Source: Bacteroidota bacterium
GTDB lineage: Bacteria; Bacteroidota; Bacteroidia; Palsa-965
Assembly: GCA_006218065.1 (NCBI GenBank)
Contig: VBWE01000012.1
Location: 11,616 to 75,615 of the forward strand
Length of the DNA stretch: 64,000 nucleotides
Direction: 5' to 3'
Position numbers and translations under genes: made by a program. Position 1 is the first letter of the stretch; every line of letters starts with the position of its first letter. The notes beneath the pieces are model-generated. The model made no database searches and was not told the DNA's origin. It worked only from the letters and a program-made list of their open reading frames with translations. This document shows, one piece after another, positions 13,034 to 39,666 of the stretch.

Positions 13034-13481
13034 AAATAGCAGCTTTATGATTCGGCGGTTTTATTTCTTTGATTTTCCCGAAAACTAAAAAACATTTTAA
13101 TGCATACCCGTTTTTTTAATACAATTTCTGCAAACAGGCATTGGGGTTTGTAAGACTTTTGCGAAACAGGCCGGCAACTTTCCAAGTTTTTGGCCGGATT
13201 GCAAGGGGAGACAACTGCGAAGTTTATATTGCTTATATGACAGATGAAATGATTTCGTAGGGGAATTTTCGATGTGCTTCTATCCTGCTCTGGTTTGCGT
13301 TTTTAGAGGTTTTGAACAGGCCCCTGCTCTCGCACTAACAAGACGAGATTATTCAAATACGATATAATGTTTATCGAGTTTCTTTTAGATAAATATTATT
13401 CTTTTAAGTCATATTCTACCCGACATGTAAATTAAATTATAATATTTACCAATATTATTACCAATAAACAAAAAACATCCA
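13034..13481. other. A+T-rich intergenic gap, likely promoter region
   Basis: About 450 bp with no plausible gene lie between divergent genes. The right half (from about 13330) is very A+T-rich with TAAATTA/ATATTA runs just before the small-protein gene. It marks the start of the A+T-rich accessory block and probably holds promoters for both directions. No specific box could be assigned with confidence. Confidence 0.4.
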
Positions 13482-13940
13482 ATGCTACTAATTGATCGGG
13501 AGAAAATGACTATCTCGTTTTTCAACAAATTCAGACAACTGGCCATTTTTGATAATTCGGCCAGTGCACCTGCACTTCATCGCTATTTTGCGCTTCGCCG
13601 TGATGATGAAAGCCAACGATGGGTAATGTTTTCAAGGCAAGCCGGTGAAATAGTAATCAGAATTGAATGTTCAGCTAACGCCCCAGCCGATACTATCCCG
13701 TTTGTCGATTACGATTTTTCGGGTGATGACGGAGATGTCTGGTTTCATAAGGGAGATGCTGATTCGCCATCTATAGTAATAGGCATGGGTGATATTCGGG
13801 GAGGAATTGCTGCCATAGACCAATACAAAATCCAGGAAGATGAAATGCTCATCGTTACCTGCACAGGTGATTTTAGTATTCGTGTGTATTCTTCATCTGT
13901 CCCGAAAGCAAATGACGTAACGGGCACTGACGGGTGTTGA
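13482..13940 (+). CDS. Small beta-rich partner protein 1, next to PAD-like enzyme
   Basis: The 152-residue protein has no signal peptide and no membrane span. Its second half carries the segment V-I-G-M-G-D-I-R-G-G (residues 104-113), which is identical in the paralogue at 16919-17338. The N-termini also match (F-F-N-K-F-R-Q-L-A-I against F-F-N-Q-F-Q-T-I-G-I). Homology starts at the internal Met at residue 9, so that Met (13506) may be the real start. The stop lies 18 bp before the PAD-like gene, suggesting one transcript. Alternating hydrophobic residues suggest a small beta-sandwich. It could be a regulator, chaperone, substrate or detached N-terminal domain of the enzyme; which one is unknown. 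Confidence 0.75.
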   Translation: MLLIDREKMTISFFNKFRQLAIFDNSASAPALHRYFALRRDDESQRWVMFSRQAGEIVIRIECSANAPADTIPFVDYDFSGDDGDVWFHKGDADSPSIVIGMGDIRGGIAAIDQYKIQEDEMLIVTCTGDFSIRVYSSSVPKANDVTGTDGC

Positions 13941-13958
13941 TTCAATTAAAAATTTGAC

Positions 13959-15290
13959 ATGATAACCACTTTTTTAAAACCTGCCCCGTCTATCCATGAC
14001 CACCAGGGACGAATCAGCAAATTCCTCATTTTCGAAACCAGCAATCATCTACTGCCTTATGATAATGACGAAAAAATCGTTTTCGCTGCATTGCGGGAGA
14101 AGTATCGTCCTTTGATTAAAGGCTTTCATGATGTTGATCCCAATAAAGAATTTGTTATTTTTTTCTCCTGCAGCAAGCATGGTAATTACCCTCAACCCTG
14201 GCATGATAGTAAACGAAAAACATGGTTCTTTCCTATTGTTACGAGCAAACGTAGTCCAGCGTTGCCATCGCGATGGGTCCAGGATATCATCGTTTTCGCC
14301 GGCAGTGGACTATTAGGTTTTAACTCTTCTCTTGTTAGCCGGGACCTGGCGTCTGTTCTCGCGGAAAAACTACGCTTGCCGGATTACGATTTCCTACCCG
14401 GGTACATGCAGGGCGGTAATATACTGACCGGTACTTTCGGCGAAAAGCGTTTTTTGCTCATCGGAAAAACAACGACTGAACAGCAGGAACATGCTGATAT
14501 GAGAAGGATTCTCCGTCAGAAGTATTTGTTAAATTGTTACGACAAAGCGACGATGGGGAAGCTTCAAAAAATCTTCTTCCACCTTGATTATTACACAGCA
14601 TTGGTAGGAGGCATTAGTGGTAATGAATGCAATGTTTATCTTCTACAGATTTTTTTTGATCCTGGCAAATCCCTTAATTCGATCCGACCTGAAGGCGATA
14701 TCGTCAAATTACCACAGCAGGCAGGCACAAATCCTGACCCCAAACTGAATTTTGTCGCGATAAAGGTTCCTATTGTCATTTTCCGGAGACCTGCAGCAGT
14801 GAAGAAAGATAAAAACTGGGAACAAGGGATTTCGGATAACGATATTGATTTGGTATTGAGTTATGCCAACTGCCATGTAGAAAACTACATGGATGGGAAA
14901 AAAAATATCATCCGCATTTTCATGCCCGATTTTTCCGATGCAGTTATTCGTTTTTATGAATCCAGGCTGAAATGGGACGAATACCAGGAAGCTTTTGCCG
15001 ACGGACTTGAAATGCTGGAGCATAATTTCAGCCTGTGGAAAAAATCGGGTCCCTCCTCTCCCCGGAGCAGGAAATTTTTCGGTAAACAAGAAGTATACGA
15101 TGTGAATTTTATCCGTGATTTGTTCACAGACATCCAGGAATATACACGTGAGTATATCAAGAAAGAACTCGGGGATAAAACCTTTAACAGAAAAGTATCC
15201 GTCATCTTTATCCCCCACGCGTTCTATGAACTGGCACGCCGCAGCGGCTCCCTGCATTGCATGAGCAAAGTGCTGGAAAGAGACATTTAA
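13959..15290 (+). CDS. Peptidylarginine-deiminase-like enzyme 1 (GME superfamily)
   Basis: The 443-residue protein carries in order the motifs expected of a PAD catalytic domain: R-W-V-Q-D (Asp109), G-G-N (152-154), F-H-L-D (His208, Asp210) and S-L-H-C (Cys434, ten residues from the end). In animal PADs the matching Asp, His, Asp and Cys hydrolyse the guanidinium group of arginine in proteins to give citrulline. Agmatine and free-arginine deiminases share the fold, so the substrate is open, though W-x-Q-D is closest to PADs. There is no signal peptide, so a cytoplasmic location is likely. It follows partner protein 1 by 18 bp, and its stop overlaps the stop of the convergent helical-repeat gene by a few bases. 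A second copy of the pair lies at 16919-18633. Confidence 0.75.
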   Translation: MITTFLKPAPSIHDHQGRISKFLIFETSNHLLPYDNDEKIVFAALREKYRPLIKGFHDVDPNKEFVIFFSCSKHGNYPQPWHDSKRKTWFFPIVTSKRSPALPSRWVQDIIVFAGSGLLGFNSSLVSRDLASVLAEKLRLPDYDFLPGYMQGGNILTGTFGEKRFLLIGKTTTEQQEHADMRRILRQKYLLNCYDKATMGKLQKIFFHLDYYTALVGGISGNECNVYLLQIFFDPGKSLNSIRPEGDIVKLPQQAGTNPDPKLNFVAIKVPIVIFRRPAAVKKDKNWEQGISDNDIDLVLSYANCHVENYMDGKKNIIRIFMPDFSDAVIRFYESRLKWDEYQEAFADGLEMLEHNFSLWKKSGPSSPRSRKFFGKQEVYDVNFIRDLFTDIQEYTREYIKKELGDKTFNRKVSVIFIPHAFYELARRSGSLHCMSKVLERDI

Positions 15291-16783
15291 ACATTTTTTT
15301 CATCTTCTTCCCGAAGCAACCGGCGCATAGTGGTACCTGTGATATGGTAATTTGCCCAGAGCTGCATTTCCGTTCCCGCCGGCAAAGGTGATTCACGACC
15401 GGCACCAAATTCCGTCATTTGTTCAATAAACTTCGCAAATACAGGAATTCGTTCGTCTTCATCCTTTGCAATGAGTTTTTTCAGCAGGCGGGCTACAGCC
15501 GCTTCATACGCGTACCAGATTTTCCGCTGCCGCAGGTACCGTTCCACGTTGATGAGTTCGTACTCCAGCAAGTCGAAGTAAGACAGCTCGAAATACAGTA
15601 CCAGCCGCAGCAGGCGGGCCAGGGCCTGCACATCGGCCCGATGGTCGTTTTTTTCGGAATTGATGATTTTATTGATCCAATCCAGCGCTGTTTTCCAGTC
15701 GTGCAGGCAAAAATAGGTCACGAAAAAATTGTAATAGAACATCAGTTCACGCGCCTTGTTGATCTTGCTCTTGTATTTCTTCAGTCCGCCGACAATTGTT
15801 TTCTCCAGGGCTGGCAATTTTTCAAAAGCATCGGTATTGATCAGGTGTAACAATTCGATGAAATAGATATTCTGGAATTGTTCCGCTTCTTCTTCAGCCG
15901 AATTGCAGGGAATGGATTTTATTTTCTCCAGCAGCGGCGGAATAACGGCAATATCGCCAATGGCGTGACAGGTGGAAAGAAAATTCGACAGCATTTTCTT
16001 GTAGGTAATTGCATCGGCCGAAATCCAGTCCGGGTGCTGCTCCCAGTGATTTACCAGGTCGCTGTAATGTTTCGAAGCTTCTTTCCAGTTGCTTTTATAC
16101 AAGGCATGCAGACTCTTCGTATGCAGCAGGTGATGCCTGCTCATAAAATCCTGTACTTCATCTTCGCGTTCAAGAGCTATTTGCATCAAGGCTTCTGCCC
16201 GCTTCAGTTTTTCTTCATCACGGCTGTTGAACATATTCCGCAGCATATAAAAAAGCTCCTGCCTGTTCTGTCCAAGTTGCGTATGCAGTCCGATTTGTGA
16301 CAAGGCTGCTAAAATTTCCTTATTGCTTTGCACGAAGAGTTCCTTCATGTTTTTCGGATTCTTCTCCAGCAATATCGCCTGCTCCAGTTCCAGCGCCGAA
16401 AGTAATATGGGATAACGGTTGTATTTCAACGCCGATTTCTTCAACCGCTCCAGTTCCGATAAACTCTGATCATACAGGCGCCTGTTGAACAGGAATTCCA
16501 CGTTCATCTGCAGGGAATACAATTCGAGGTTGACCGAAGTTCCTTCGTGATACGACCGTAACGCACGCAGAATGGCCTGGTAGAGATAGAACAATCTTTT
16601 CTCGTCGGATGAAGCGGATTTACCTGTTTTCGTTTTCGCACCGTTTTTGCCTGCAACTGTATTCAATAAATCCAGCAATGCTTTCCCGTCTTCATTTTCT
16701 TTCCCGAGCCAGATACTGATATATCGCTTTTCCTGGGTAGATAATGCCTGGTAAAGCGCATTTACTTTATCCTTGACTGCCAT
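15287..16783 (-). CDS. Helical-repeat protein 1, Bacteroidota family
   Basis: The 498-residue all-helical protein resembles TPR/alpha-solenoid proteins without clean TPR consensus. It starts with the family's typical L-S-T-Q-E-K-R-Y segment (residues 14-21). Conserved blocks shared with the paralogue at 21150-22676 include I-P-C-x-x-x-E-E-E-A-E-Q-F-Q-N and A-R-L-L-R-L-V-L near residue 400. No enzymatic motif or signal peptide is seen. The gene is convergent with PAD-like gene 1 (their stops overlap in TTAA) and divergent from partner protein 2. This family occurs in many Bacteroidota as a hypothetical protein. A scaffolding or regulatory role is inference only. Confidence 0.75.
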   Translation of the reverse strand: MAVKDKVNALYQALSTQEKRYISIWLGKENEDGKALLDLLNTVAGKNGAKTKTGKSASSDEKRLFYLYQAILRALRSYHEGTSVNLELYSLQMNVEFLFNRRLYDQSLSELERLKKSALKYNRYPILLSALELEQAILLEKNPKNMKELFVQSNKEILAALSQIGLHTQLGQNRQELFYMLRNMFNSRDEEKLKRAEALMQIALEREDEVQDFMSRHHLLHTKSLHALYKSNWKEASKHYSDLVNHWEQHPDWISADAITYKKMLSNFLSTCHAIGDIAVIPPLLEKIKSIPCNSAEEEAEQFQNIYFIELLHLINTDAFEKLPALEKTIVGGLKKYKSKINKARELMFYYNFFVTYFCLHDWKTALDWINKIINSEKNDHRADVQALARLLRLVLYFELSYFDLLEYELINVERYLRQRKIWYAYEAAVARLLKKLIAKDEDERIPVFAKFIEQMTEFGAGRESPLPAGTEMQLWANYHITGTTMRRLLREEDEKNV

Positions 16784-16918
16784 AGGTTTATTTACTGTTT
16801 TTCAATTAGTTACTAAAATATACATATAAAACGGACGAATGAAATTACAGGAATAAATGACTTGGTTCGTGGGATTAAATGGTGATTTCTTTGCTGCAAA
16901 CTAAAAAACAAAAACAAT

Positions 16919-17338
16919 ATGGACTATACAATCACATTTTCCTCCGACCTTGGATTGTTCTTTTTTAATCAATTCCAAACGATCGGAATTTACAGTTTTT
17001 CAGAAAAAAAATTTAAACATTGGCACAAACTCTATGATATTGCATCTGAAGTGCCGGTATGCGAAAGAATAAAAATCAGCGGTGATGTACTTTCAATATC
17101 TGCCGTTACAGCGCCCCAGGATCCATCTGATCCTTCCTCGGATTGGATTCCTTATTTCTTTGGTCAGCTTGCTGATGCAGGTGATTGCTGGCTGGAAGGA
17201 GCTGAAATTGTAATCGGCATGGGAGACATCCGTGGTGGTGTTACAAATATTACGATTGACAGATACGCACTGAACAGTGCGAAAACAGTTTATATGACAA
17301 GTAGTGGGCCTTATTGCATAAAGATTCTCGAAGTATAA
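16919..17338 (+). CDS. Small beta-rich partner protein 2, next to PAD-like enzyme
   Basis: The 139-residue paralogue of the protein at 13482-13940 shares the N-terminal F-F-N-x-F segment and the identical V-I-G-M-G-D-I-R-G-G stretch near residues 98-107. The middle parts have diverged strongly, so this is an old duplication or a separate gain. It has no signal peptide. The stop is 23 bp before the second PAD-like gene, repeating the order seen in module 1. Codon use and base composition are more A+T-rich than in module 1. Confidence 0.75.
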   Translation: MDYTITFSSDLGLFFFNQFQTIGIYSFSEKKFKHWHKLYDIASEVPVCERIKISGDVLSISAVTAPQDPSDPSSDWIPYFFGQLADAGDCWLEGAEIVIGMGDIRGGVTNITIDRYALNSAKTVYMTSSGPYCIKILEV

Positions 17339-17361
17339 CTAATTACTCAAACACCTTCTGT

Positions 17362-18633
17362 ATGAATAGTCAACTTGCTTCCCAGGGGCAGATCAGTAGA
17401 ATATTGATTGCTGATTGTTTAGGGCAGGAAAACCCTGATACGGTTTATGATGAACTTTTAAATACGTACCGGGATTTTTTAGCAGAGTTCGGAAATTTTC
17501 ACCCGGTAGACATATTTGTTCTTTTTGATCTGCAGGGAAGCAAGACTATTTCTCTGGAGAAGGTAAAATGTCTTGATAAACTGGGAAACGGTTCATCTCT
17601 CTTCGCAATATGCGTAAATTATGATGATCCCGGATGTACACTGAACACGTTATGGATACAAGACGTTTTACTTACAATACGGGATAATACTTGTCTTTTT
17701 GACCCAAGTCAGTCCATTCCAGATGGTCAAGTCGGAACATTTGGACTGGGAGAAAAACAGGCCCAATCAATTATGAGTTCAATACCTGGATTTACTATAA
17801 CTACAGGTAAATTGCCCTGTGCTGGTGGCAACCTCTTACTCGGGCGAGTTAATGAAATAAATTATGGCTTTACGGGTGCCAATGATCCCACTACACTCAA
17901 AAATATATGCAGCCAATTTGACATTGCCCCGGAATACTTGTTTTCACCAATGTCAGTAATTATTCGAAATGATCCGCACCTCTTTCATGTTGATCGTTTT
18001 ATTACTATCGTTGGTTCTACTTTAAAAGAAAAAAATAAACACCTTTTATTGTTTGCACAACCGGAACTAGCAGACCCTCAAAATGCAATACCCAATGAAA
18101 CAATTACAATTCTAAATGCTATCGAGCAAGAATTACTTGGCTTTATAAAAACTACGGGCTTACCGCTTATAGTTGAAAAAATCCCTCTTCTTTTCACAAA
18201 TTTTGCATCAAGAACAATATCGTTGTCATTTAACAACAGTGTTGTTGAAAACAACTTTCTACCCGAAGCACCATCTCCAGTAATTTATTTCCCAAAGTAT
18301 AACCGAACCGCTTATTCACATGTAAACAAAAAAAGCGACTCTGAATTAATTCAGTTCTACGGCGACGAAAAAATAATTAACGATGCATCCGGAGAGGATG
18401 AATTTAATGACCATCCTGTTTTCAAAAGGAACGAGTTTCTCAATAAAATAAGGCTAGAGCTTTGCATTGAGGCAGATGCTGCTATAGCAAATGCTGTCAA
18501 AAAAATTATGGCGACTCTTTCAAAGTATAAAATTCCTAAGGATCATATACGTTTTATTGATTACAATTTCCGAAAGCCGTCCAGTCGCGGAGGTGCTTTA
18601 CATTGTCTGACCAAAGTAATTAAACGCAATTAA
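17362..18633 (+). CDS. Peptidylarginine-deiminase-like enzyme 2 (GME superfamily)
   Basis: The chosen ATG at 17362 gives 423 residues. The longer frame needs a TTG inside the upstream gene, and the ATG start lines up with enzyme 1 (Q-G-Q-I-S-R against Q-G-R-I-S-K). Catalytic motifs are all present: W-I-Q-D (Asp101), G-G-N (155-157), F-H-V-D (His209, Asp211) and G-G-A-L-H-C (Cys415, eight residues from the end). The spacing matches enzyme 1 and the PAD catalytic domain, but the N-terminal Ig-like domains of animal PADs are missing. Arginine deimination is therefore the expected chemistry; the substrate is unknown. It is preceded by its small partner and followed after 88 bp by a membrane protein on the same strand. 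Confidence 0.75.
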   Translation: MNSQLASQGQISRILIADCLGQENPDTVYDELLNTYRDFLAEFGNFHPVDIFVLFDLQGSKTISLEKVKCLDKLGNGSSLFAICVNYDDPGCTLNTLWIQDVLLTIRDNTCLFDPSQSIPDGQVGTFGLGEKQAQSIMSSIPGFTITTGKLPCAGGNLLLGRVNEINYGFTGANDPTTLKNICSQFDIAPEYLFSPMSVIIRNDPHLFHVDRFITIVGSTLKEKNKHLLLFAQPELADPQNAIPNETITILNAIEQELLGFIKTTGLPLIVEKIPLLFTNFASRTISLSFNNSVVENNFLPEAPSPVIYFPKYNRTAYSHVNKKSDSELIQFYGDEKIINDASGEDEFNDHPVFKRNEFLNKIRLELCIEADAAIANAVKKIMATLSKYKIPKDHIRFIDYNFRKPSSRGGALHCLTKVIKRN

Positions 18634-18721
18634 CGAAACACCTTTTATTCGTTGAAGTTTAACAACGTAAGGTTTCACCATTTACAATGGTCCGGCGGAG
18701 CTTTGCTAAAAACCAACAACC

Positions 18722-19318
18722 ATGATCAGCTACTGGATTTTTTTCTGCCTCTTTATTGCACTGCTGCTTTTTCTCGAAAAAAGCGGAGGAATATTCCGTG
18801 ATTCGAGCAACTTACTTCCGACCGGTGGAAAGAAGCCGTTCAGTTTATCCAGGATATTGCTCGCCTGGTGGGTGCTGATCATTCTGCCTGGGTTTACAGC
18901 CATTTTGATCGGTACAGGTTTTATTCCTGTGCTCAGCAGTCAAATGCTCGTATTGCTCGGTGTAAGCGGCGGCACTACCCTCATATCCCGGGTGGTTGAT
19001 GCAGTCGACCTCCAAACCGCACAGGCCGCAGGTGCCAATCCACGAAGCATCGACAATCCTTCGGCCGGTTTCTGGAAAGATATTCTTTCCGATAACGGCG
19101 GCATAAATATTCACCGAGTTCTCTCGGTGCTGACTAACCTCATCGTCGGGAGCTGGATGATTGTGACTTTCTGTATTAACCTGCAGCATATACCCGAAAC
19201 GCCTATGCAGGCCGATGCGAATAACCTTCTTCCGCAAATAGAAACCGCAACGCTGGTCCTGTTGGGAATAAGTGCAGGGATTTACACGACTGTCAAGGCG
19301 ACGGAAAACCGGGCCTGA
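18722..19318 (+). CDS. Small multi-span membrane protein
   Basis: The 198-residue protein has hydrophobic segments near residues 2-20, 43-70, 75-90, 134-155 and 176-192. The last one reads L-V-L-L-G-I-S-A-G-I-Y, and a similar L-V-L-L-G-V-S-G-G-T-T segment lies near residue 78, so the protein may contain two related halves. No catalytic motif is visible. It is on the same strand as PAD-like enzyme 2 and may be co-transcribed with it and with the following two genes. Function is unknown. Confidence 0.7.
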   Translation: MISYWIFFCLFIALLLFLEKSGGIFRDSSNLLPTGGKKPFSLSRILLAWWVLIILPGFTAILIGTGFIPVLSSQMLVLLGVSGGTTLISRVVDAVDLQTAQAAGANPRSIDNPSAGFWKDILSDNGGINIHRVLSVLTNLIVGSWMIVTFCINLQHIPETPMQADANNLLPQIETATLVLLGISAGIYTTVKATENRA

Positions 19319-19460
19319 CCAGATAATATCTCAAAGCGGAGAAGCCGAAAACAGAAGAGATAGTTATTCTAATCGGCCTAGTACACATGCAAGGAAATAA
19401 GGACACATAGTAATACATGCATTGATCATAACAATTATATCTCACCTAAAAACAAATCAC

Positions 19461-19811
19461 ATGCCTATCGAACGAGTAAACAAAACAGAACAATATGAAC
19501 TCGGCACCGGATCGCTTCAACTCCGCGCCTGGGTCGGGTACAACCAATTTGGAACCATCAGCGCGTGGCTGAACCAGCAGCCACTTGGCACTGCAAACAG
19601 TCTTGACAAAACAATTGGACCGGTTAAACAACTTTCCGGGAAGCGGCTTGTGGTAATCAGTACTGTTCAAGACATTATGGCCAGTACCAACACGACCAGT
19701 ATAACCATTGAATTGAGCGACGGTACAAACTCCAAAACCTACACCTATACACAAGCCGTTTCTGTCAATGGTGGCGCCGTTATCTACAGTATTATCATAA
19801 ACCTTATCTGA
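19461..19811 (+). CDS. Small beta-rich protein of unknown function
   Basis: The ATG at 19461 gives 116 residues. A start 13 codons upstream would add a segment with no sign of conservation. The sequence is rich in Thr, Ser, Asn and alternating hydrophobics, without a signal peptide. Its segment L-S-G-K-R-L-V-V-I-S-T-V-Q-D is loosely reminiscent of small beta proteins that accompany surface or tail-like structures, but I cannot assign a family. Its stop codon is one base before the start of the outer-membrane protein gene, so the two are tightly coupled. Confidence 0.6.
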   Translation: MPIERVNKTEQYELGTGSLQLRAWVGYNQFGTISAWLNQQPLGTANSLDKTIGPVKQLSGKRLVVISTVQDIMASTNTTSITIELSDGTNSKTYTYTQAVSVNGGAVIYSIIINLI

Positions 19812-19812
19812 C

Positions 19813-21054
19813 ATGAAAAATTTCTTCTTCTGTATCCTGTGTACGTGTATTGTTCGAAACAGCCATGCACAAATAAACATAACCGGCACATCGAGCCAGG
19901 CTTTACCGGCTTTTTTCATCATCGATAAAGAACCTAAATCGGTAGCGACACCGAGCAATCCTCGGAAACTCGCTGCCAGTATTTTGAATGCATTTGATCA
20001 AGAAGGAGGATTTAACCCTGATGTTGGTATTGAATTTGCTCCTTATTGGCTGAGAGATAGCAGCAGGATTTCATTACCCACTCCCAACCCAGGACAACAG
20101 TATATACCAGCAGCCTTCCAGAGTCTTGCATTTTCCATTGCCTCTGCGGAAGAAAAGAAAATCAACTCGGATATTTCCGGGCGAGTAATTGGTTTGGGAT
20201 TTCGGATACATCCAGCATTACGGATCAATGTTTCAACCGCTCAAAATGTACGTAATATGACTAGAAATGGTACCTTAATAAATATCATCCAATTTGTCTC
20301 TTTACAAGCGGCATTCAACAATATGTTAAACCAAAATGCAATTGTTACTCAGATCAGGGATCAAATAAATATTCAGTACGCAACTGACCTTGATGCCCGG
20401 GTTTTGTATAACACTTATCTTGATCGTATGGTTCAAAAAACACCAATGACTGCAAACGAAAACGCTACAGCGTACATTCAACGTTTACAGGATGCAATGG
20501 TAATGAACGTAAACATTTCTCAAGAAAAATTATATGACAATAATAGCAATAGACGTAAATTCAACTGGGAAGTAGCGGGCGCAACCGGTATGCGCTTTCC
20601 CACGAATGAAATCGGCTTTAGTTACCTGTCCCGAGTTGGCATTTGGACAAGTGTCTCTTATAGCATAGGAGGAAACAACAATCGTCGGGTTTGCTCTTTC
20701 AACGGAATGGCCCGCATCCTCTCCTCCTTTACAGATTCAATTACGACAAACTATGATGCCGGCATAAGCTTTACCGGCAAATGGTGGCCCAGCCTGCCAT
20801 TTTCGCTCGAATTTGTCGGGCGGCGTTATGTCTATGAATATGATGATATCAACCAGGCCGGCGATACCATTAACCGTATTGACCGCAAGAATACTTACCG
20901 TCTTGCACTTACTGCCGACTTTGCTATTGACGAAGACCTTTCATTGAATTTCACATTCGGAAGAGACTATGACAAGCCTTTCCAAACTTCTGGCAATCTT
21001 CTCGGTATCATCGGATTGAACTATACGTTTGGAACGAGGAATAAGTTGAGATAG
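19813..21054 (+). CDS. Putative outer-membrane beta-barrel protein
   Basis: The 413-residue protein starts with a signal peptide (Phe/Cys-rich core, cleavage after S-H-A at about residue 19). The first half is soluble-looking. The second half (from about residue 245) has alternating strands with Gly/aromatic residues. The end, G-I-I-G-L-N-Y-T-F-G followed by T-R-N-K-L-R, resembles barrel C-terminal strands. The protein follows the small beta-rich protein gene by one base, so they are probably translated together. A hairpin terminator sits 20 bp after its stop. It may be the surface component of the accessory locus, but the ligand or cargo is unknown. Confidence 0.65.
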   Translation: MKNFFFCILCTCIVRNSHAQINITGTSSQALPAFFIIDKEPKSVATPSNPRKLAASILNAFDQEGGFNPDVGIEFAPYWLRDSSRISLPTPNPGQQYIPAAFQSLAFSIASAEEKKINSDISGRVIGLGFRIHPALRINVSTAQNVRNMTRNGTLINIIQFVSLQAAFNNMLNQNAIVTQIRDQINIQYATDLDARVLYNTYLDRMVQKTPMTANENATAYIQRLQDAMVMNVNISQEKLYDNNSNRRKFNWEVAGATGMRFPTNEIGFSYLSRVGIWTSVSYSIGGNNNRRVCSFNGMARILSSFTDSITTNYDAGISFTGKWWPSLPFSLEFVGRRYVYEYDDINQAGDTINRIDRKNTYRLALTADFAIDEDLSLNFTFGRDYDKPFQTSGNLLGIIGLNYTFGTRNKLR

Positions 21055-21074
21055 TTTTTTCGGAGGTTCAACAC

Positions 21075-21112
21075 AAACACCGCAACTCAGTATCCCCTTG
21101 GTTGCGGTGTTT
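21075..21112 (+). terminator. Hairpin terminator after outer-membrane protein gene
   Basis: Perfect 12-bp arms, AAACACCGCAAC and GTTGCGGTGTTT, enclose a 14-base loop. It ends the run of co-directional genes from 16919 to 21054 and precedes helical-repeat gene 2. Confidence 0.7.
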
Positions 21113-21149
21113 ATCCATAAACTGCATTGACATTTCAAGACCCGTTGCC

Positions 21150-22676
21150 ATGTCCAAAACCGATACGCTCTTCGAATTAGTAAGCTCTTTGTCCACTGCC
21201 GAAAAACGCTACATAGGTGTATTTTCGAAAAAGCACCAGGTAAATGATTACCTCAATCTGTTTGGAAAGGTGTCAACTCAAGCGAAAAAAATCAAGAAGA
21301 ATACCGGAGAAAATTCCAAAAATCTAAAGCGGTTAAAGATAAACTCCTCCGAGAAAAACTACATCTACTCCTTCATCCTGAAAGCCCTCCGTTCTTTCCA
21401 CGAATCACGAAACGTGGATATCGCCATCCGCGAAATGCTGATCAACGCCGGGCTGCTGCTGGAGAAACGCTTGTTTAAGCAAAGTCTGAAAATGTTGCAG
21501 CGGGCAAAGAAACAGGTCATGGGTTTTGACCGTCACCTGCTACTGGCTGAGATAATCCAGATGGAAATCCAGGTGATCGTGGAAATCTCCGGCAAAGATG
21601 CGCTCCTGCATTTCGATTCACTGACCGAAGCATTCGGTTCTGTAATCGGTTTATACCCGAATGAGCTGGCCGCAGCTTCGCTCCAGCAACGTATCCGGCT
21701 CCTGCAGCGCAGGCACGAAAGGCTGCCGCAATCCAAACAATGGAAATACAGTGAACAATTGGATTCGTTGCTGGCGCTTGCCAAAAGCACGCGCAATTTT
21801 TCTTTGCTGCATAACAGCCTTTTTGCCCGGGCCATGTTCAACCATTCGCTTGGCCGTTTTGCAGGTTCCGCCGCAGTGTATGAAGAACTGATTGCTTTGT
21901 GGGAAACACGTCCCGACCGTATCCGGGGTGAAAACATGCTGTTCAAAAAAATCATTTTCAATTACCTGATTGCCTGTCACCGCCTCGAACGTTTCGATGT
22001 TTACCCGCCTATGATCGGCCGCATCCGGGCTATTCCCTGCACCAACACGGAAGAAGAAGCCGAACAATTCCAGAACCTGCAGATGATGGAACTGCTTTTA
22101 CTTATGAACACCGACGGCTATGATCAACTTCCGCGCATAGAAGCGGAAATAAGTGCAGGGTTGAGGCAATACAGGAACAAGATCAACAAAGCGCATGAAC
22201 TGGCATTTTATCACAATATCGCGATGGCGCATTTTCTCTGCGAAGACTGGAAATCGTCGATGGGGTGGATTGAAAAAATCATGCTGGAAAAAAAATCACA
22301 GCAGCGTATCGACCTGCAGTGCTTCGCCCGCTTGCTGCGTCTTGTACTCTGGTACGAAACCGGGAAATATGATCTCCTGGAATATGAAACCATCAATGCG
22401 CAACGCTACCTGCGCAAAAATGGCGGCTGGACTGTGTTCGAATCCACTGTAACCAAACTCGTAGCCAGGTTACCGGCAATTCCGGCTGAGGAAAAGCCGG
22501 TACTGTTCCGCAAAGCTTTCCACCAGCTTCAGAAAATAAAAGAAAACACGGAAACGGCAGGTGTGCCGGGACTTGATGAACTGATCTGCTGGATGCAAAG
22601 TCATCTGGAGGGAATCACCATACGGGAAGTAATGAAGATTGAGAACAACAAATCAGTTCCCGGTTCTAAAAAATAA
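21150..22676 (+). CDS. Helical-repeat protein 2, paralogue of 15287-16783
   Basis: The ATG at 21150 gives 508 residues and lines up with the start of the paralogue (L-S-T-A-E-K-R-Y at residues 14-21). A longer frame runs back into the terminator hairpin and is rejected. The protein is helical throughout, with the shared blocks I-P-C-T-N-T-E-E-E-A-E-Q-F-Q-N, K-I-N-K-A-H-E-L, and A-R-L-L-R-L-V-L followed by D-L-L-E-Y-E. No enzymatic motif or membrane span is present. It has its own leader after a terminator and its own terminator behind it, so it is a separate transcription unit. Having two copies around the PAD-like modules suggests a linked role, but the family is also common elsewhere in the phylum. 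Confidence 0.75.
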   Translation: MSKTDTLFELVSSLSTAEKRYIGVFSKKHQVNDYLNLFGKVSTQAKKIKKNTGENSKNLKRLKINSSEKNYIYSFILKALRSFHESRNVDIAIREMLINAGLLLEKRLFKQSLKMLQRAKKQVMGFDRHLLLAEIIQMEIQVIVEISGKDALLHFDSLTEAFGSVIGLYPNELAAASLQQRIRLLQRRHERLPQSKQWKYSEQLDSLLALAKSTRNFSLLHNSLFARAMFNHSLGRFAGSAAVYEELIALWETRPDRIRGENMLFKKIIFNYLIACHRLERFDVYPPMIGRIRAIPCTNTEEEAEQFQNLQMMELLLLMNTDGYDQLPRIEAEISAGLRQYRNKINKAHELAFYHNIAMAHFLCEDWKSSMGWIEKIMLEKKSQQRIDLQCFARLLRLVLWYETGKYDLLEYETINAQRYLRKNGGWTVFESTVTKLVARLPAIPAEEKPVLFRKAFHQLQKIKENTETAGVPGLDELICWMQSHLEGITIREVMKIENNKSVPGSKK

Positions 22677-34721: not shown

Positions 34722-35093
34722 TCACGAAAACCATTTGAGTACCGATTTTTCGATGCCGAGATACAAACCGTCGGCGCGTTCTTCGAGGGGATAAACCAGG
34801 CAGGCACCGGCAAAACCGCTGCGCGCGCGGCCATGCTCAAATTCGAAAGCGTACCGGTGCAAAGGACAAACCATGCCTTTGCCGTCTTCGGTGCACCAGC
34901 CTTTGCTCAGGGAAAAACCGTTGTGCGGGCAGCGGTCGCTTATGGCTTTCAGTCCGTGCGATGTATGCGCGATGCAAACGGTATGACCGGCTACGGTGAT
35001 CTGCATGCCTTTGTTCAGGGGAATACGCCGTTTCGGTTCTTCCGCGCTGCGGAATATTTTATGCCAGTAGATGACCGTTTTGAACATGCTCAT
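34722..35093 (-). CDS. Rieske [2Fe-2S] protein, soluble
   Basis: The 123-residue protein has the Rieske cluster ligands as C-P-H (Cys55, His57) and C-P-L-H (Cys76, His79). It belongs to the small ferredoxin-like type related to nitrite reductase small subunits. No signal peptide or anchor is seen, so it is cytoplasmic. The start overlaps the stop of the bestrophin-like gene (35090-35093), so they form an operon. An electron-transfer role is expected, but no oxygenase partner is nearby. Confidence 0.85.
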   Translation of the reverse strand: MSMFKTVIYWHKIFRSAEEPKRRIPLNKGMQITVAGHTVCIAHTSHGLKAISDRCPHNGFSLSKGWCTEDGKGMVCPLHRYAFEFEHGRARSGFAGACLVYPLEERADGLYLGIEKSVLKWFS

Positions 35094-35962
35094 TCCCCGA
35101 TGATTTCTTTCAGGTTCTCGCGGATCTTTTTCGCAAGATCATCGGTAGGCAAATCGTTGGCATCGGTTCCGAAAGGATCTTCGATTTCTTCGGCGAGCAG
35201 CTCCAGGCTGGCGAAAGCGTAGAAGATGAACATCGAGCATAAAACGGACCAGTAACCGAAATCCGTGAGCAATCCGAAGGGCAATGTGATGCTGTAAATG
35301 AAAATTACTTTTTTCAGGAACATGTTATAGGAATACGGGATGGGCGTGTTCCGTATTCTTTCGCAGGCGCCCATATTGTCGGTGATGTTGCGCAGTTCTT
35401 CGGTGAGTACCAGCAGTTGCGGATCGGTTAAATGTCCCCTGCGGTACTGCTCGTTTATTTCGATCATGAGCTGTGCGGCGAAAGCATTCGGCGTATGGAC
35501 TTTCGTGGCGAATTCTTCCGCGTCGAAACCTTCGTATGTGTCCCATTCATCCTCGTTGGTCTGGTTGCGCAGGTGCGATTTCGCCGCGAAAAAATAATTG
35601 CTCAGCAGCACGCGCATTTTCCGGCGCAGGGCGGAATCATCCACGGGCAGGAAAGCATTCAGTTTGATGCAGAGGTTCCGGCTGCTGTTCACAAATCCGC
35701 CCCAGAGTTTTCGGCCTTCCCACCAGCGGTCGTAGCCGGTATTGGTGCGGAACACGAGCAGGAGCGAAATGACGAAACCGAGCAGCGAATGCACGATCGG
35801 GCTCGACTTATAATCCACTTCAAAAACATCTTTGATCAGGAATTCTGCAAGTCCCGTGAAAGCGCCCAGCACCAGCATCGCCGGCAGGAGCATGCGCATG
35901 GTATCGTTCTTGTGAAACTGGAGAATCAGTTTTACCCAGTCCTTGGGATTGTAATTGACCAT
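35090..35962 (-). CDS. Bestrophin-like membrane protein
   Basis: The 290-residue protein matches the bacterial bestrophin family (UPF0187). The core motif F-R-T-N-T-G-Y-D-R-W-W-E-G-R lies near residues 71-84, after two hydrophobic spans. Two more spans occur near residues 215-255, and the acidic tail E-E-I-E-D-P-F-G-x-D-A-N-D-L-P follows. Bacterial members form pentameric ion channels in the inner membrane. The gene overlaps the Rieske gene by four bases. Confidence 0.9.
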   Translation of the reverse strand: MVNYNPKDWVKLILQFHKNDTMRMLLPAMLVLGAFTGLAEFLIKDVFEVDYKSSPIVHSLLGFVISLLLVFRTNTGYDRWWEGRKLWGGFVNSSRNLCIKLNAFLPVDDSALRRKMRVLLSNYFFAAKSHLRNQTNEDEWDTYEGFDAEEFATKVHTPNAFAAQLMIEINEQYRRGHLTDPQLLVLTEELRNITDNMGACERIRNTPIPYSYNMFLKKVIFIYSITLPFGLLTDFGYWSVLCSMFIFYAFASLELLAEEIEDPFGTDANDLPTDDLAKKIRENLKEIIGE

Positions 35963-36049
35963 ACGCGAAAATATAGTTCAATGGCTCAATTACCAAATGC
36001 TGATCTTGAAATGGTAAAAACAAGTTTCGAATGCCAATATTGCAATTGT

Positions 36050-36183
36050 GGCTAACGGTTTGCAGCTACAAGAAGGGCGGGACTTTTACCACAAAACTTG
36101 ATTTGAAAAACTAATATTTGATTAACCACAAAACTTTCATTGGAACACGAAACCCCGCCTTTTTGGCAGATGCTGTTATAGCC
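36050..36183 (-). repeat. attC-like imperfect palindrome (integron cassette site candidate)
   Basis: Read on the minus strand, this 134-bp element starts GGCTATAAC and ends GTTAGCC. The ends pair, and about 30-bp imperfect arms (15 of 20 matches in the inner part, closing with GGCGGG/CCCGCC) surround an A+T-rich middle. The end core fits the GTTRRRY-like site only loosely. It lies directly downstream of the two nuclease-like genes in their own orientation, where an attC site would sit. The middle holds ACCACAAAACTT twice. Confidence 0.5.
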
Positions 36184-36379
36184 AGTGGTTCTTGTCGACC
36201 GTGTTTCAAACTATTGTCAGTATTGAGTTTTTGTGTCATTGTCGTGTCGGCTGTTAGTTGCGTTTTTTATTTTTTGAAACGTTAGAAATTATTTAAAACA
36301 ATTTTTCTTTTGGGTTGGCTTTGCAAGCTCTATTAAAAACTTTCTCTCTTATCCTACAAATCTTCAGCTAACTTGATTT

Positions 36380-37882
36380 TCATTGTTTTTTCTTGTGTGC
36401 ATAAAACTCTACTCCTTCCAAGAGGAAATGATTTTTTATATTTCCGGAATAGTCATGAAATTCAGCTACTCTGGTTTCCCGGTCAAAATTGAATACACGA
36501 TAGAGATGATAATTTTCCGGATTCATTTCAGAAAAAGCAACCTCATTCAATGTTATCACCATTGGCGAGGAAGCTCCAGATGTCGTGGTCTTGACCTCGA
36601 TATATTTCACTCTGCCGTCAGGATACCTGGATTCAATATCATAGCCTTTTCCATCCTTTACCTTTTGTACTTCACTTATCAAATCATCACGTTCTGCTTC
36701 CTGCAGCATTTTCTTCTCATATTCCATTACAAGTTCCTCTCCTAATGCACCAAGCTCGCTGTTTTCCTTGTTCCTTTTTTCCCAATCAGTGTGATGACCT
36801 GTGAAGGAAAATGTTCTCTCCGGTACAGTGTTTACACCCTCTTGTGGCACATCTCTTTTTATAAGCCGATTTTTCAGCTTTCCGACTTTCACTTCTCCAC
36901 TCCACACGGATTGTATTATCTCGTCATACAAGTTTTCATTTTCCCTGATGAATTTCTCTGTCTCATCAAGAAGTCTTTGCCAAGAATAGCCTGTAATCTC
37001 CGTATATGGCACCTCAAGCCAACTGACTTCATTCGGTATCAGTTGCTCACATAGCAATTGCTGAGCTTTTGTCAATTCAGAATTCTTCTCAAAATAGTAG
37101 TCAAGTTTATAGACGAGGCATCGTTTCCTTCCATCAGCTCCAACAGTGAAGAAAATATCTTTGTACGCATCCTCTGTTCTATAAATCCGTGCCCAGGTAT
37201 ACGGTTTGAATCTCGCCACTCTTTTTTTGCCTTCAGGAGTTTCTTCCCATCCTTTCTGACTCCACATTCTCCAATTAAAGGTTTCAAACCCCGGAAGTCT
37301 TTCAATCAATTTTTCAGACCAGTATACGGTTTTGGAACCTAACGATTCCATTATATAATCTTTTGCTTCCCTGTGCTCCGTATTGTGTTTTTCATAGGTT
37401 CGTCCTGCCCATTCACTCAGGAAATCCAGTTCTTCCAAGGTGAAAAATTCAGGCTCTTCATTCTGCTCTTCTCCCTGCATGGCAGGAGGAGTAGGTGTCT
37501 CATGGACTTCCGATTCAGAAGCGTCATTTCTGAAGCGTTGATAATTCTCTGCATTACGCCAGAAGTTAATGCATTCTGTCTGCATTTGATTACCAAAACG
37601 CTGTGATTTCAGCTGAGCTGCGTTTCCAAACCCGAGTTCTTCCGCAAGCTCAAAAAAACCGTTTCCAAATCCTCTGCCATCTAAATACACGGCCATAGAA
37701 CTCAGCATTGGTCTTCCTTTCCTTCTTTCGAACCTGGATATTTCTGCAAGTTCTGAACTGAGAAGATTCCTGTGCTCCGGAATTTCGTGATTGAGTTCAA
37801 GCTGCTGCATTATTGTACTGTATGCAGCAGGGGCCTTGAGCCTGGCTCTTTCGACAAGGTAATTTCTTAATTCAATATTCAT
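36380..37882 (-). CDS. DUF3883-domain protein, candidate defence component
   Basis: The 500-residue protein ends with a DUF3883 domain (about residues 375-490) containing G-Y-D-I-E-S and Y-I-E-V-K-T-T, the layout of a PD-(D/E)xK nuclease-like fold. The N-terminal 110 residues (S-R-F-E-R-R-K-G-R-P-M-L-S-S and G-F-F-E-L-A-E-E-L-G-F) resemble a module found in restriction-linked proteins. The middle part is unassigned. The ATG abuts the stop of the upstream gene (TAAATG), so the two form one operon. DUF3883 is often found near restriction or anti-phage genes. Both genes are A+T-rich compared with their flanks. Confidence 0.75.
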   Translation of the reverse strand: MNIELRNYLVERARLKAPAAYSTIMQQLELNHEIPEHRNLLSSELAEISRFERRKGRPMLSSMAVYLDGRGFGNGFFELAEELGFGNAAQLKSQRFGNQMQTECINFWRNAENYQRFRNDASESEVHETPTPPAMQGEEQNEEPEFFTLEELDFLSEWAGRTYEKHNTEHREAKDYIMESLGSKTVYWSEKLIERLPGFETFNWRMWSQKGWEETPEGKKRVARFKPYTWARIYRTEDAYKDIFFTVGADGRKRCLVYKLDYYFEKNSELTKAQQLLCEQLIPNEVSWLEVPYTEITGYSWQRLLDETEKFIRENENLYDEIIQSVWSGEVKVGKLKNRLIKRDVPQEGVNTVPERTFSFTGHHTDWEKRNKENSELGALGEELVMEYEKKMLQEAERDDLISEVQKVKDGKGYDIESRYPDGRVKYIEVKTTTSGASSPMVITLNEVAFSEMNPENYHLYRVFNFDRETRVAEFHDYSGNIKNHFLLEGVEFYAHKKKQ

Positions 37883-38800
37883 TTATAGTTTCGCTTTAAA
37901 ATCAGGATTCAGCTTACGAAACTCATCAAGAATCTCACGTCTCTTGCCATCCATTATTCTGCATGCTTCAGGGGAAAGCATAAAGGTTGGACAGTCATCA
38001 TTGCCGCATCCACATGGACGGATTTCTTTCTTTTTCTTCAATGAAACAAAAGTATCTCTCAATTGAACAACAAGGTTGGTAATATGCGACAGCTTTTTCT
38101 TCATATTCTTATCAGCTATTCTGTGTCTCGAAGGAATTGTTCTGATAACTTCACCACTCCTCAGACGGTGAACCCCGGTGTTCAATACCTCAATAATGTC
38201 TTCGAGCCCTTTCTGAAAATTGGGAAGAGAGCTCTCCATTTCGAGGCGTGTTGTCATAGCCGGTCTGTCAATACACTCTCCAAGGAGTTCGAGAATATCC
38301 TGATCACTCTTATTTGCTGTATCCTTGGCCGCCTTTATTAAGTCCACAGGAGAATCGGGAAATGGTTCTCCTTCTACAAAACGTTTGATAAGTTCAGGAG
38401 TTTCCTTCCGAAGTTTTTCTTCAAACTCCACTCCGGACCACACCTCTACTGTCTTTGCCCCTGCATCCTTACCATAATCCTGAACTTTTTTCCTAAGATT
38501 AGCCGATACGGTACCGCCACATACAACAACAAGATTATTTGGAACTGTCTTTTTCTTCGCAAGCGTGTCAATATCGCCCTTTGCTTTATTGATGGTTAAC
38601 TGTGAATGGTTAGCGCATAAGTAACAGGTACTTTCGTTTTTGTATTCTCCCCATACGTCCCTGCCACCATCATGTCCGACCTGACCAAGCCACTCAATTT
38701 TATCCCAGTCCTTCTGCCGGGAAGCATAGGCGAAAGTCAAACGTTCGAATTCCACTCCGGGACGGTCTGAAAAGTGAATTCTCATTACTGTTTTTTCCAT
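37883..38800 (-). CDS. Restriction-endonuclease-like protein, candidate defence component
   Basis: The 305-residue protein has an N-terminal region like Mrr-type or PD-(D/E)xK nucleases, with G-H-D-G-G-R-D-V-W-G at residues 42-51 followed by C-Y-L-C-A-N. The strand L-V-V-V-C-G-G and then V-W-S-G-V-E-F-E-E-K-L-R follow. The usual Q-x-K after the Asp is replaced by C-A-N, so activity is uncertain. The C-terminal region holds C-G-C-G-N-D-D-C, which could bind metal. It is the first gene of the pair and its stop abuts the start of the DUF3883 gene. Confidence 0.7.
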   Translation of the reverse strand: MEKTVMRIHFSDRPGVEFERLTFAYASRQKDWDKIEWLGQVGHDGGRDVWGEYKNESTCYLCANHSQLTINKAKGDIDTLAKKKTVPNNLVVVCGGTVSANLRKKVQDYGKDAGAKTVEVWSGVEFEEKLRKETPELIKRFVEGEPFPDSPVDLIKAAKDTANKSDQDILELLGECIDRPAMTTRLEMESSLPNFQKGLEDIIEVLNTGVHRLRSGEVIRTIPSRHRIADKNMKKKLSHITNLVVQLRDTFVSLKKKKEIRPCGCGNDDCPTFMLSPEACRIMDGKRREILDEFRKLNPDFKAKL

Positions 38801-39294
38801 TCTGTATTTTATTTTTTCCTCCTATTTATCAATAAACCGAGTTATGGCTAATAAAGAACATGCAAAAATCATTGCTCTTCTTGAGCGGATAATGTCAGAG
38901 ACTATTCAAATCTATTACATTTTAATCAAATTTTCTTCCCAACCAACATCCATTTTAAAACAATAACAAACAAATCGCGACAAAACTCCACCACCCCGAG
39001 CGCAGCCGAAGGGCGTGTACGGAAACCCTGTATATAAAAGTCACAGGTACACGCCCCTCGTCTGCGCTCGGGGTGACATCGTTATATTTTTAGTTATTGG
39101 AAGAGTATGGACGCAGTCCAGGTACATGTCCCCGGAACTTTTGCGCCCGGGGTGACATCGTTATATTTTAATTATTGGAATAGTTTGAACGTTGGGGTTG
39201 AATATTGGTGCTTGGAAAATTGGTTTTTGTCTAAAGGACTCCTTCGGAGAAAATTGGTATTTGGAAGTTTGTTTTTGGTAATTTTAGCTCGTCA
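38801..39294. other. Repeat-rich intergenic gap
   Basis: No plausible gene lies here. The left 180 bp are A+T-rich and probably carry the promoter of the nuclease-like pair. At 38990-39078 a palindrome pairs CACCCCGAGCGCAG with its inverted copy (CTGCGCTCGGGGTG). A direct repeat, GGGGTGACATCGTTATATTTT, occurs at about 39071 and 39150. The last 90 bp repeat T/G-rich words (TTGGTGCTTGG, TTGGTATTTGG). Confidence 0.6.
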
Positions 39295-39666
39295 ATGAGC
39301 GAGTCCAAACGTATCGACAAATGGCTCTGGTCTGTCCGCATCTTCAAAACGCGTTCGCTGGCTACGGAAGCCTGCAAAGGCGGGAAAGTAAAGCTTAACG
39401 GCGACCCGGTTAAACCGGCGCGCGAACTGAAAGCCGGCGATGAAATCAGCTTTAAGCAGAGTATCATTACGCGCACGGTGAAAGTGCTTGCCTTTCCGCC
39501 TTCACGCGTGGCGGCTAAACTGGTGGCGGGTTTTATGGACGACCTGACGCCTGCCGAAGAATACCAGCGCCTGAAAGATATGCGCGAACTGGGTCCGTCC
39601 GTTTTTCATACCGGCAAAGGCCGACCGACCAAACGCAACCGGCGCAAGCTCGATAATCTCTTTTAA
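39295..39666 (+). CDS. S4-domain RNA-binding protein, Hsp15-like
   Basis: The 123-residue protein carries an N-terminal S4 domain (R-I-D-K-W-L-W, then K-T-R-S-L-A-T-E-A-C through G-K-V-K-L-N-G near residue 35) and a basic tail (G-R-P-T-K-R-N-R-R-K). This matches the Hsp15/HslR group, which binds stalled 50S subunits carrying nascent chains in E. coli. It is followed after 5 bp by the DUF493 gene on the same strand. Confidence 0.85.
   Translation: MSESKRIDKWLWSVRIFKTRSLATEACKGGKVKLNGDPVKPARELKAGDEISFKQSIITRTVKVLAFPPSRVAAKLVAGFMDDLTPAEEYQRLKDMRELGPSVFHTGKGRPTKRNRRKLDNLF

What the first reader, a model, noticed from the sequence alone, without database searches (positions are those of the whole stretch)
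36380..38800. Candidate two-gene defence system: REase-like plus DUF3883
The stop of the first gene abuts the start of the second. The first has a G-H-D-G-G-R-D-V-W-G nuclease-like core with a changed catalytic end and a Cys cluster. The second carries a DUF3883 nuclease-like fold and a restriction-linked N-terminus. The pair is A+T-rich and flanked by a mobile-looking element.
Basis: inference. Interest (0 to 1): 0.6.

Follow-up and report, generated by a model that had tools for sequence, protein, structure and literature searches.

The report
Inserted two-gene restriction-like defence cassette
A bacterium carries a small foreign insert of just two genes, one encoding a DNA-cutting protein with a domain that may read DNA and one encoding a nuclease-shaped protein whose usual cutting residue is gone, and relatives of both sit beside anti-virus genes, so the pair is probably a small phage-defence module that nobody has tested.

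Summary
Two minus-strand genes (38800-37883, 305 aa; 37882-36380, 500 aa) abut exactly, TAA then ATG. They are the only sizeable genes in a 3,332-bp, 41% GC insert. In three same-family relatives the two flanking housekeeping genes lie 66-74 bp apart, so the insert is an acquired cassette.

Gene 1 has a predicted PD-(D/E)XK-type core. Asp48 is invariant, but the motif-III lysine is absent in 44 of 44 family members; an invariant Lys72 on the next helix may replace it. No Pfam model hits it. Its relatives lie next to defence genes: directly upstream of PD-Lambda-3 A/B in 8 of 53 loci, and in or beside BREX in 2 of 53. Gene 2 has an intact NOV_C/DUF3883 nuclease, a middle domain with a DUF1054-like predicted fold (weakly like the McrB reader), and a small N-terminal domain.

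Against a conserved two-gene system: 0 of 53 gene-1 loci carry a gene-2 relative nearby.

Best reading: a restriction-like, possibly modification-dependent (type IV-like) nuclease cassette with an atypical nuclease-fold partner. The defence role is likely but inferred; the mechanism is less certain. New variant of a known kind.

The parts
35963..39294 (.). Inserted segment of 3,332 bp between a bestrophin-like gene (35090-35962 -) and an S4-domain gene (39295-39666 +); 40.7% GC
   Evidence: The two flanking genes lie 66-74 bp apart in three same-family relatives; composition
37883..38800 (-). Gene 1 (P0001, 305 aa): atypical PD-(D/E)XK-type core plus helical C-terminal domain with Cys cluster
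   Evidence: ORF; alignment A5 of 44 sequences; AlphaFold2 model pLDDT 85.6, pTM 0.55
38351..38800 (-). Gene 1 residues 1-150: nuclease-fold domain; E19, D44, D48, C62, N64, K72 invariant in 44 of 44; motif-III Lys absent
37991..38014 (-). Gene 1 C263-x-C265-x4-C270 cluster
   Evidence: Conserved in 37 of 38 rows that reach it
36380..37882 (-). Gene 2 (P0002, 500 aa): N-terminal domain, middle DUF1054-like domain, C-terminal NOV_C nuclease
37508..37882 (-). Gene 2 residues 1-125: domain also found as a stand-alone gene of about 120 aa
   Evidence: its model is of low confidence
36890..37453 (-). Gene 2 residues 144-331: predicted DUF1054/YktB-like fold, candidate DNA reader; shared with other nuclease-like proteins in restriction contexts
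36467..36742 (-). Gene 2 residues 381-472: NOV_C (DUF3883) nuclease with GEE 381-383, D415 and E429-V430-K431 present
38992..39075 (.). Palindrome with 29-nt arms, dispersed in this genome (REP-like)
   Evidence: 14 half-sites in the genome, the reversed control pattern gave 0

Best explanation
A horizontally acquired two-gene nuclease cassette that most likely restricts invading DNA. Gene 2 is the cutter: its middle domain recognises a feature of foreign DNA, plausibly a modified base as in McrB-type readers, and its C-terminal NOV_C domain cleaves. Gene 1 is an atypical PD-(D/E)XK-fold partner that binds DNA or gates gene 2, and may itself cut with a relocated lysine (K72). Shown by computation: gene structure, insertion, NOV_C and its catalytic residues, lost lysine, defence company of relatives of gene 1. 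Predicted: the fold of gene 1 and the fold of the middle domain. Inferred: anti-phage function, physical partnership, recognition of modified DNA, role of K72.
For: Empty site of 66-74 bp in three relatives against 3,332 bp here. Abutting genes with no obvious ribosome-binding site before gene 2, which suggests translational coupling. NOV_C at 73 bits with D415 and E-V-K intact. PADLOC PDC-S36 E 1e-40 over residues 303-496, PD-T4-1 E 2e-12. Gene-1 core: EcoT38I at Foldseek probability 0.98; Avs4 N-terminal nuclease region Z 9.7, MspJI Z 8.5, EcoT38I Z 8.3. Relatives of gene 1: typically 6 nt upstream of PD-Lambda-3_A, which is present in 8 of 53 loci; between PglX and BrxH in one BREX operon and beside BrxL/PglZ in another; beside Qat in E. 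coli KFu022. PADLOC models hit at least 9 of 86 neighbours against at most 3 of 86 control genes. Middle domain: DUF1054-type proteins Z 11.7 and 9.6, McrB DNA-binding domain Z 5.5; it also heads a nuclease-like gene lying between a type I R-subunit-like gene and an Mrr_N gene. MrcB_N fused to NOV_C exists on two lactobacillus plasmids. No third gene large enough for a methyltransferase is in the insert.
Against: The pairing is not conserved: 0 of 53 gene-1 loci have a gene-2 relative in their flanks. Foldseek gave no PDB match at E <= 0.001 for either model. The link from the middle domain to McrB is weak: Z 5.5 only, and a profile comparison with MrcB_N found nothing. Gene 1 lacks the motif-III Lys, and this copy also lacks the near-invariant Gln61 (L61), so it may be inactive. 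The PD-Lambda-3 neighbours are 84-100% alike, so they are not eight independent events. No phenotype data exist.
Confidence: 0.5

Rival explanations
1. Two independent defence genes that happen to be adjacent: gene 1 is a portable accessory of several systems, gene 2 a self-sufficient restriction enzyme. They came in on one piece of DNA but do not work together.
For: 0 of 53 gene-1 loci have gene 2. Gene-1 relatives keep quite different company: PD-Lambda-3, BREX, and a fusion into a 1,152-aa protein. Proteins with NOV_C of about 280 aa are common elsewhere.
Against: Exact stop-start abutment, and they form the whole sizeable coding content of the insert.
Confidence: 0.27
2. Abortive-infection module: gene 1 senses infection through its nuclease-like fold and releases gene 2 as a non-specific nuclease that destroys the cell's own DNA.
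For: PD-Lambda-3, the commonest defence neighbour of gene-1 relatives here, is described as an abortive-infection system in PMC13190303 (passages). The best fold match of gene 1 is the N-terminal region of Avs4.
Against: No ATPase or other recognisable sensor is encoded in the insert. Gene 2 carries its own candidate reader domain.
Confidence: 0.15
3. Restriction half of a type II-like restriction-modification system whose methyltransferase lies elsewhere in the genome.
For: PMC10609329 groups DUF3883 presumptively with type II restriction enzymes (passage).
Against: No methyltransferase-sized third gene in the insert. A cassette without its methylase would harm a new host on arrival unless it were modification-dependent (inference).
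Confidence: 0.05
4. A degenerate or non-defence insert (for example repair or regulation) with decayed nuclease domains.
For: Gene 1 has lost the motif-III Lys and, in this copy, Gln61. Flanks are housekeeping genes.
Against: Both frames are open and full length. The lost Lys is a family-wide state with other invariant residues around it, not decay of this copy. NOV_C residues are intact.
Confidence: 0.03

Closest known systems
NOV_C / DUF3883 nucleases, including PADLOC candidates PDC-S36 and PD-T4-1
   Same: Gene 2 residues 303-496 match PDC-S36 (E 1e-40) and residues 326-469 the PD-T4-1 model (E 2e-12). PMC3710099 calls DUF3883 a novel REase domain (passage).
   Different: Gene 2 adds an N-terminal and a middle domain not covered by those matches, and sits in an operon with gene 1.
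MrcB_N (DUF3578)-NOV_C proteins of lactobacillus plasmids
   Same: Same plan of a reader-like domain followed by NOV_C. In Loigolactobacillus the gene follows a 'restriction endonuclease' and a 'subunit S' gene.
   Different: The gene-2 middle domain is not MrcB_N by Pfam or by profile comparison; its predicted fold is closest to DUF1054.
McrBC and other type IV restriction
   Same: Candidate reader plus nuclease, no methyltransferase-sized third gene in the insert. The McrB DNA-binding domain is a weak fold match (Z 5.5).
   Different: No AAA+ GTPase and no McrC found by Pfam in either protein.
PD-Lambda-3 loci (TIGR02391 gene plus a small gene)
   Same: A gene-1 relative lies directly upstream of PD-Lambda-3 A/B in several islands, also in E. 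coli.
   Different: Neither PD-Lambda-3 gene is in this window's insert.
Mrr-like nuclease domain of Avs4; EcoT38I; MspJI
   Same: Predicted core topology and best structural matches of gene 1.
   Different: No motif-III Lys in gene 1; no NTPase domain; different C-terminal domain.

Membership tests
NOV_C (PF13020 / DUF3883) | Score above Pfam's gathering threshold | tested here: met
   73 bits against 22.1, E 2.2e-20, residues 381-472
NOV_C (PF13020 / DUF3883) | D and E-x-K nuclease residues present | tested here: met
   D415, E429-V430-K431; aligned with relatives
[quoted passage not shown]
   Predicted only: H15-29, E34-38, E48-53, E56-62, H70-82, E89-93
Catalytically canonical PD-(D/E)XK / Mrr nuclease (gene 1) | Motif II Asp | tested here: met
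   D48 in 44 of 44
Catalytically canonical PD-(D/E)XK / Mrr nuclease (gene 1) | Motif III (D/E/Q)xK with Lys | tested here: not met
   Position 63 is A 26, V 17, T 1; position 61 is Q in 40 of 44 but L in this copy
Catalytically canonical PD-(D/E)XK / Mrr nuclease (gene 1) | Lys moved to the helix after strand 3, as PMC1913061 describes for other families | tested here: inconclusive
   K72 invariant, 44 of 44, on helix 70-82; geometry not measured
McrBC | AAA+ GTPase (McrB) and McrC nuclease | tested here: not met
   Pfam at E <= 10 finds only NOV_C in the two proteins
McrBC | MrcB_N / DUF3578 methylcytosine-binding domain | tested here: not met
   No Pfam hit; hhalign against two MrcB_N members, probability 0.4%. 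Fold match to the McrB domain weak, Z 5.5
Type IV restriction in the broad sense | No cognate methyltransferase in the operon | tested here: met
   Only two long genes in the insert, neither with a methyltransferase domain by Pfam
Type IV restriction in the broad sense | Cuts only modified DNA | not testable with these tools
   Needs biochemistry or phage assays
PD-Lambda-3 | Both PD-Lambda-3_A and _B proteins | tested here: not met
   Neither model appears among the hits of the two window proteins at E <= 10
Conserved two-gene system (gene 1 + gene 2) | Pair recurs in other genomes | tested here: not met
   0 of 53 loci (blastp). Of six gene-1 genomes searched whole, one has only a partial NOV_C hit, on another contig

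The most novel reading that the evidence does not exclude
Gene 1 founds a so far unnamed family of portable defence subunits: a nuclease-fold domain that has given up the standard catalytic lysine, used as a DNA or infection sensor that plugs into unrelated effectors (PD-Lambda-3 systems, BREX, a fusion into a large P-loop-like protein, and here a NOV_C nuclease). In this window it pairs with a nuclease whose reader has a DUF1054-like fold, a reader type that, to my knowledge, has not been assigned to restriction.
Probability: 0.25. Interest if true: 0.65.

Novelty: new variant of a known kind. Interest (0 to 1): 0.45.

Why it matters
If right, it gives a minimal, cloneable two-gene nuclease cassette and points to an uncurated family (gene 1) that keeps company with several defence systems, including PD-Lambda-3 loci in E. 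coli, where it can be deleted or added in laboratory strains. It also offers a testable function for the DUF1054-like fold: reading DNA in restriction.

Tried and rejected
Rejected: gene 1 as a plain Mrr nuclease (motif-III Lys absent); gene 2 as McrB (no AAA+ domain; profile comparison with MrcB_N negative); a transposon as carrier (only a dispersed palindrome and no transposase-sized gene in the insert).

Led nowhere: scans of viral contigs with gene 1, gene 2 and their alignments, five scans, no relatives; the phage collection with gene 1 and with the gene-2 N-terminal 365 residues, no match; the plasmid collection with the gene-2 N-terminal 365 residues, no match; PDB sequence searches, nothing credible; PHROGs, one weak hit to gene 1 (E 0.0064) and none to gene 2; a first single-sequence scan of genome contigs, none. 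The vinculin-like matches of gene 1's helical C-terminal part (Z 6.5-8.1) are treated as a common helix arrangement. A paper search for the names LPO_1073, Vpar_1526, PDC-M58, PDC-S36 and YktB listed papers only for YktB. A first alignment of gene 2 with all its partial relatives was misaligned outside NOV_C, so only residues 1-335 were folded, with N-terminal rows cut short.

Limits: the PADLOC neighbour count used 86 of the 88 neighbours at 22 of the 52 loci for which neighbours were listed (197 in all); two neighbours, at L017 and L026, were left out. Loci were chosen for contigs long enough for a control, and the control covers 20 of those 22 contigs, so two loci (L027, L038) have no control. 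The tool gives counts per model, so the number of neighbours with any hit is only a lower bound: 6 PD-Lambda-3_B plus 3 PD-Lambda-3_A. The 96 models include overlapping ones. The PD-Lambda-3-bearing islands are related to each other and are not independent. Genes in the loci were called by a simple longest-frame rule, so some listed neighbours may be spurious.

Full report
What is there. On the minus strand, gene 1 (38800-37883, 305 aa) ends in TAA and gene 2 (37882-36380, 500 aa) begins with ATG on the very next base. A Shine-Dalgarno-like AGGAGG precedes gene 1; nothing of the kind precedes gene 2, which suggests translational coupling (reading of the sequence). A 500-codon frame does not arise by chance: the maximum in 300 single-base shuffles of the insert was 184 codons.

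It is an insert. The flanking bestrophin-like gene and S4-domain gene (names by eye) are divergent neighbours 66-74 bp apart in three same-family relatives (L131, L133, L134), in the same gene order as here. In the window 3,332 bp lie between their start codons, at 40.7% GC against 50.8% for the window. In a fourth relative (L132) the S4 gene was not found beside the bestrophin-like gene; its S4 gene is on another contig. Gene 1 was found in 1 of 12 genomes of the order, its own, and in 2 of 395 genomes of the phylum sample, its own and a remote match at E 2.9e-5. The 'mobile-looking element' is an inverted repeat at 38992-39075. Its half-site occurs 14 times in the genome with up to two mismatches, eight of them in four close pairs; the reversed control pattern gave 0. 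It is a REP-like dispersed palindrome, not a transposase gene.

Gene 1. Pfam finds nothing at E <= 10. PADLOC gives only PDC-M58A at E 0.0035 and NCBIfam only a hit below its cut-off. A profile scan of genome contigs returned 53 related loci, from Bacteroidota, Pseudomonadota, Acidobacteriota, Synergistota and Myxococcota by their record titles. In an alignment of 44 sequences, E19, D44, D48, C62, N64 and K72 are invariant; Q61 is kept in 40 of 44 (L in this copy and in L016, A in two others); residue 63, where the motif-III lysine would stand, is A 26, V 17, T 1. The remote relative L007 was left out of that alignment (it is in A3, where the column pattern differs). [quoted passage not shown] Foldseek has no PDB match at E <= 0.001; EcoT38I comes at E 0.008 with probability 0.98. 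The second look gives Avs4 Z 9.7 over 131 residues, AF1548 8.7, MspJI 8.5, EcoT38I 8.3. One relative, P0003, passes Pfam's Mrr_cat cut-off, 22.6 bits against 21. Migration of the lysine to the helix after strand 3 is described for other families in PMC1913061 (passages); K72 sits on that helix, but its geometry was not measured.

Company of gene-1 relatives. PD-Lambda-3_A is found in 8 of 53 loci and PD-Lambda-3_B in 9 of 53, at 84-100% identity to the query copies, the A gene typically starting 6 nt after the gene-1 relative. In E. coli KFu022 the same three genes lie beside Qat A-D; 8 of 5,426 E. coli genomes hold at least 80% of that 3-kb stretch. In L013 the relative sits between PglX and BrxH, with BrxC and PglZ outside them, and in L021 it is next to BrxL and PglZ. 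At E <= 1e-8, PADLOC models hit at least 9 of 86 neighbours (6 PD-Lambda-3_B and 3 PD-Lambda-3_A; also IetA/IetS, DRT, Avs3a and AbiEi models) against at most 3 of 86 control genes about 50-160 kb away on the same contigs, where the only three models hit are ZorB/MotB. In Bacteroidota the core is also fused behind other modules, and in Acidisarcina it heads a 1,152-aa protein.

Gene 2. NOV_C is solid and its D415 and E429-V430-K431 are present. Residues 303-496 match PADLOC's PDC-S36 at E 1e-40. Residues 144-331 recur as the N-terminal domain of proteins of about 540 aa: in L091 between a gene with a type I restriction R-subunit domain and an Mrr_N gene, in L092 beside a DUF4365/dynamin-like gene, and in L093. 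A two-sequence profile found the domain in 6 of 295 genomes of the class, the window's own included. Its model is confident (block pLDDT 80-98 over 141-330) and resembles DUF1054-type proteins (Z 11.7 and 9.6), then PsiB (6.3) and the McrB DNA-binding domain (5.5) (that 2a8e is a YktB/DUF1054 protein is recalled, 3mqz is so titled). Foldseek itself found nothing at E <= 0.001. The McrB N-terminal domain binds methylcytosine (PMC11090510, passage). MrcB_N fused to NOV_C exists on two plasmids, but a direct profile comparison of MrcB_N with the gene-2 middle domain is negative. Residues 1-125 match stand-alone genes of about 120 aa next to a proline dehydrogenase-like gene in three genomes, which does not speak for restriction; that part of the model is poor.

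Do the two belong together? For: exact abutment, and joint presence as the whole sizeable coding content of a small insert. Against: BLASTP of gene 2 against all ORFs of the 53 loci gives no hit, and the full three-domain gene 2 was not met elsewhere: in 395 genomes of the phylum searched with its first 365 residues only parts were found (5 of 395 with a match, its own included), and of 398 genomes in the phylum of a Lysobacter relative searched with the whole protein, 23 have a match at E <= 1e-10, none beginning before residue 302. The pairing is therefore rare or recent.

Verdict. A real, acquired two-gene cassette with nuclease-type folds; a defence role is likely (about 0.75, inferred from domains and company of relatives); the specific model of a reader-nuclease with an atypical nuclease-fold partner stands at 0.5. 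Papers seen: passages of PMC3710099, PMC10609329, PMC13190303, PMC1913061, PMC11090510 and PMC9519451, and section 7 of PMC9519451; other papers only as search listings. Paper searches for DUF3883, for the PD-systems, for type IV/MrcB terms and for the model names listed no description of this pair in their titles or abstract openings; that is limited to the held library.

Noticed in passing
L009, L010, L044, L046, L048: In several Bacteroidota the gene-1 core is fused behind an uncharacterised N-terminal module that begins MGLYV or MGLWV; in L048 the fusion sits between a SIR2-like and a P-loop NTPase-like gene (recognised by eye).
   Followed up: partly
L116:7359-8792: In E. coli ECCWS199 the PD-Lambda-3 genes are followed by an annotated restriction endonuclease (477 aa, Mrr_cat at E 2e-12), so PD-Lambda-3 loci may often carry a nuclease as a further gene.
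   Followed up: partly
L007:1141-3026: A remote relative of gene 1 (28% identity over query residues 107-249) is followed by a gene with a weak NERD nuclease match.
   Followed up: partly
window 13001-22000: A second A+T-rich stretch (38-47% GC) with two pairs of look-alike unknown genes (443 and 439 aa; 498 and 524 aa).
   Followed up: no
L092 (genome G403, same family as the window's genome): A 533-aa nuclease-like protein that begins with the gene-2 middle domain, beside a DUF4365/dynamin-like gene: another possible defence pair.
   Followed up: partly
L142:1651-4420: Loigolactobacillus plasmid with a 'restriction endonuclease subunit S' gene, a 'restriction endonuclease' gene and an MrcB_N-NOV_C gene in a row.
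   Followed up: partly
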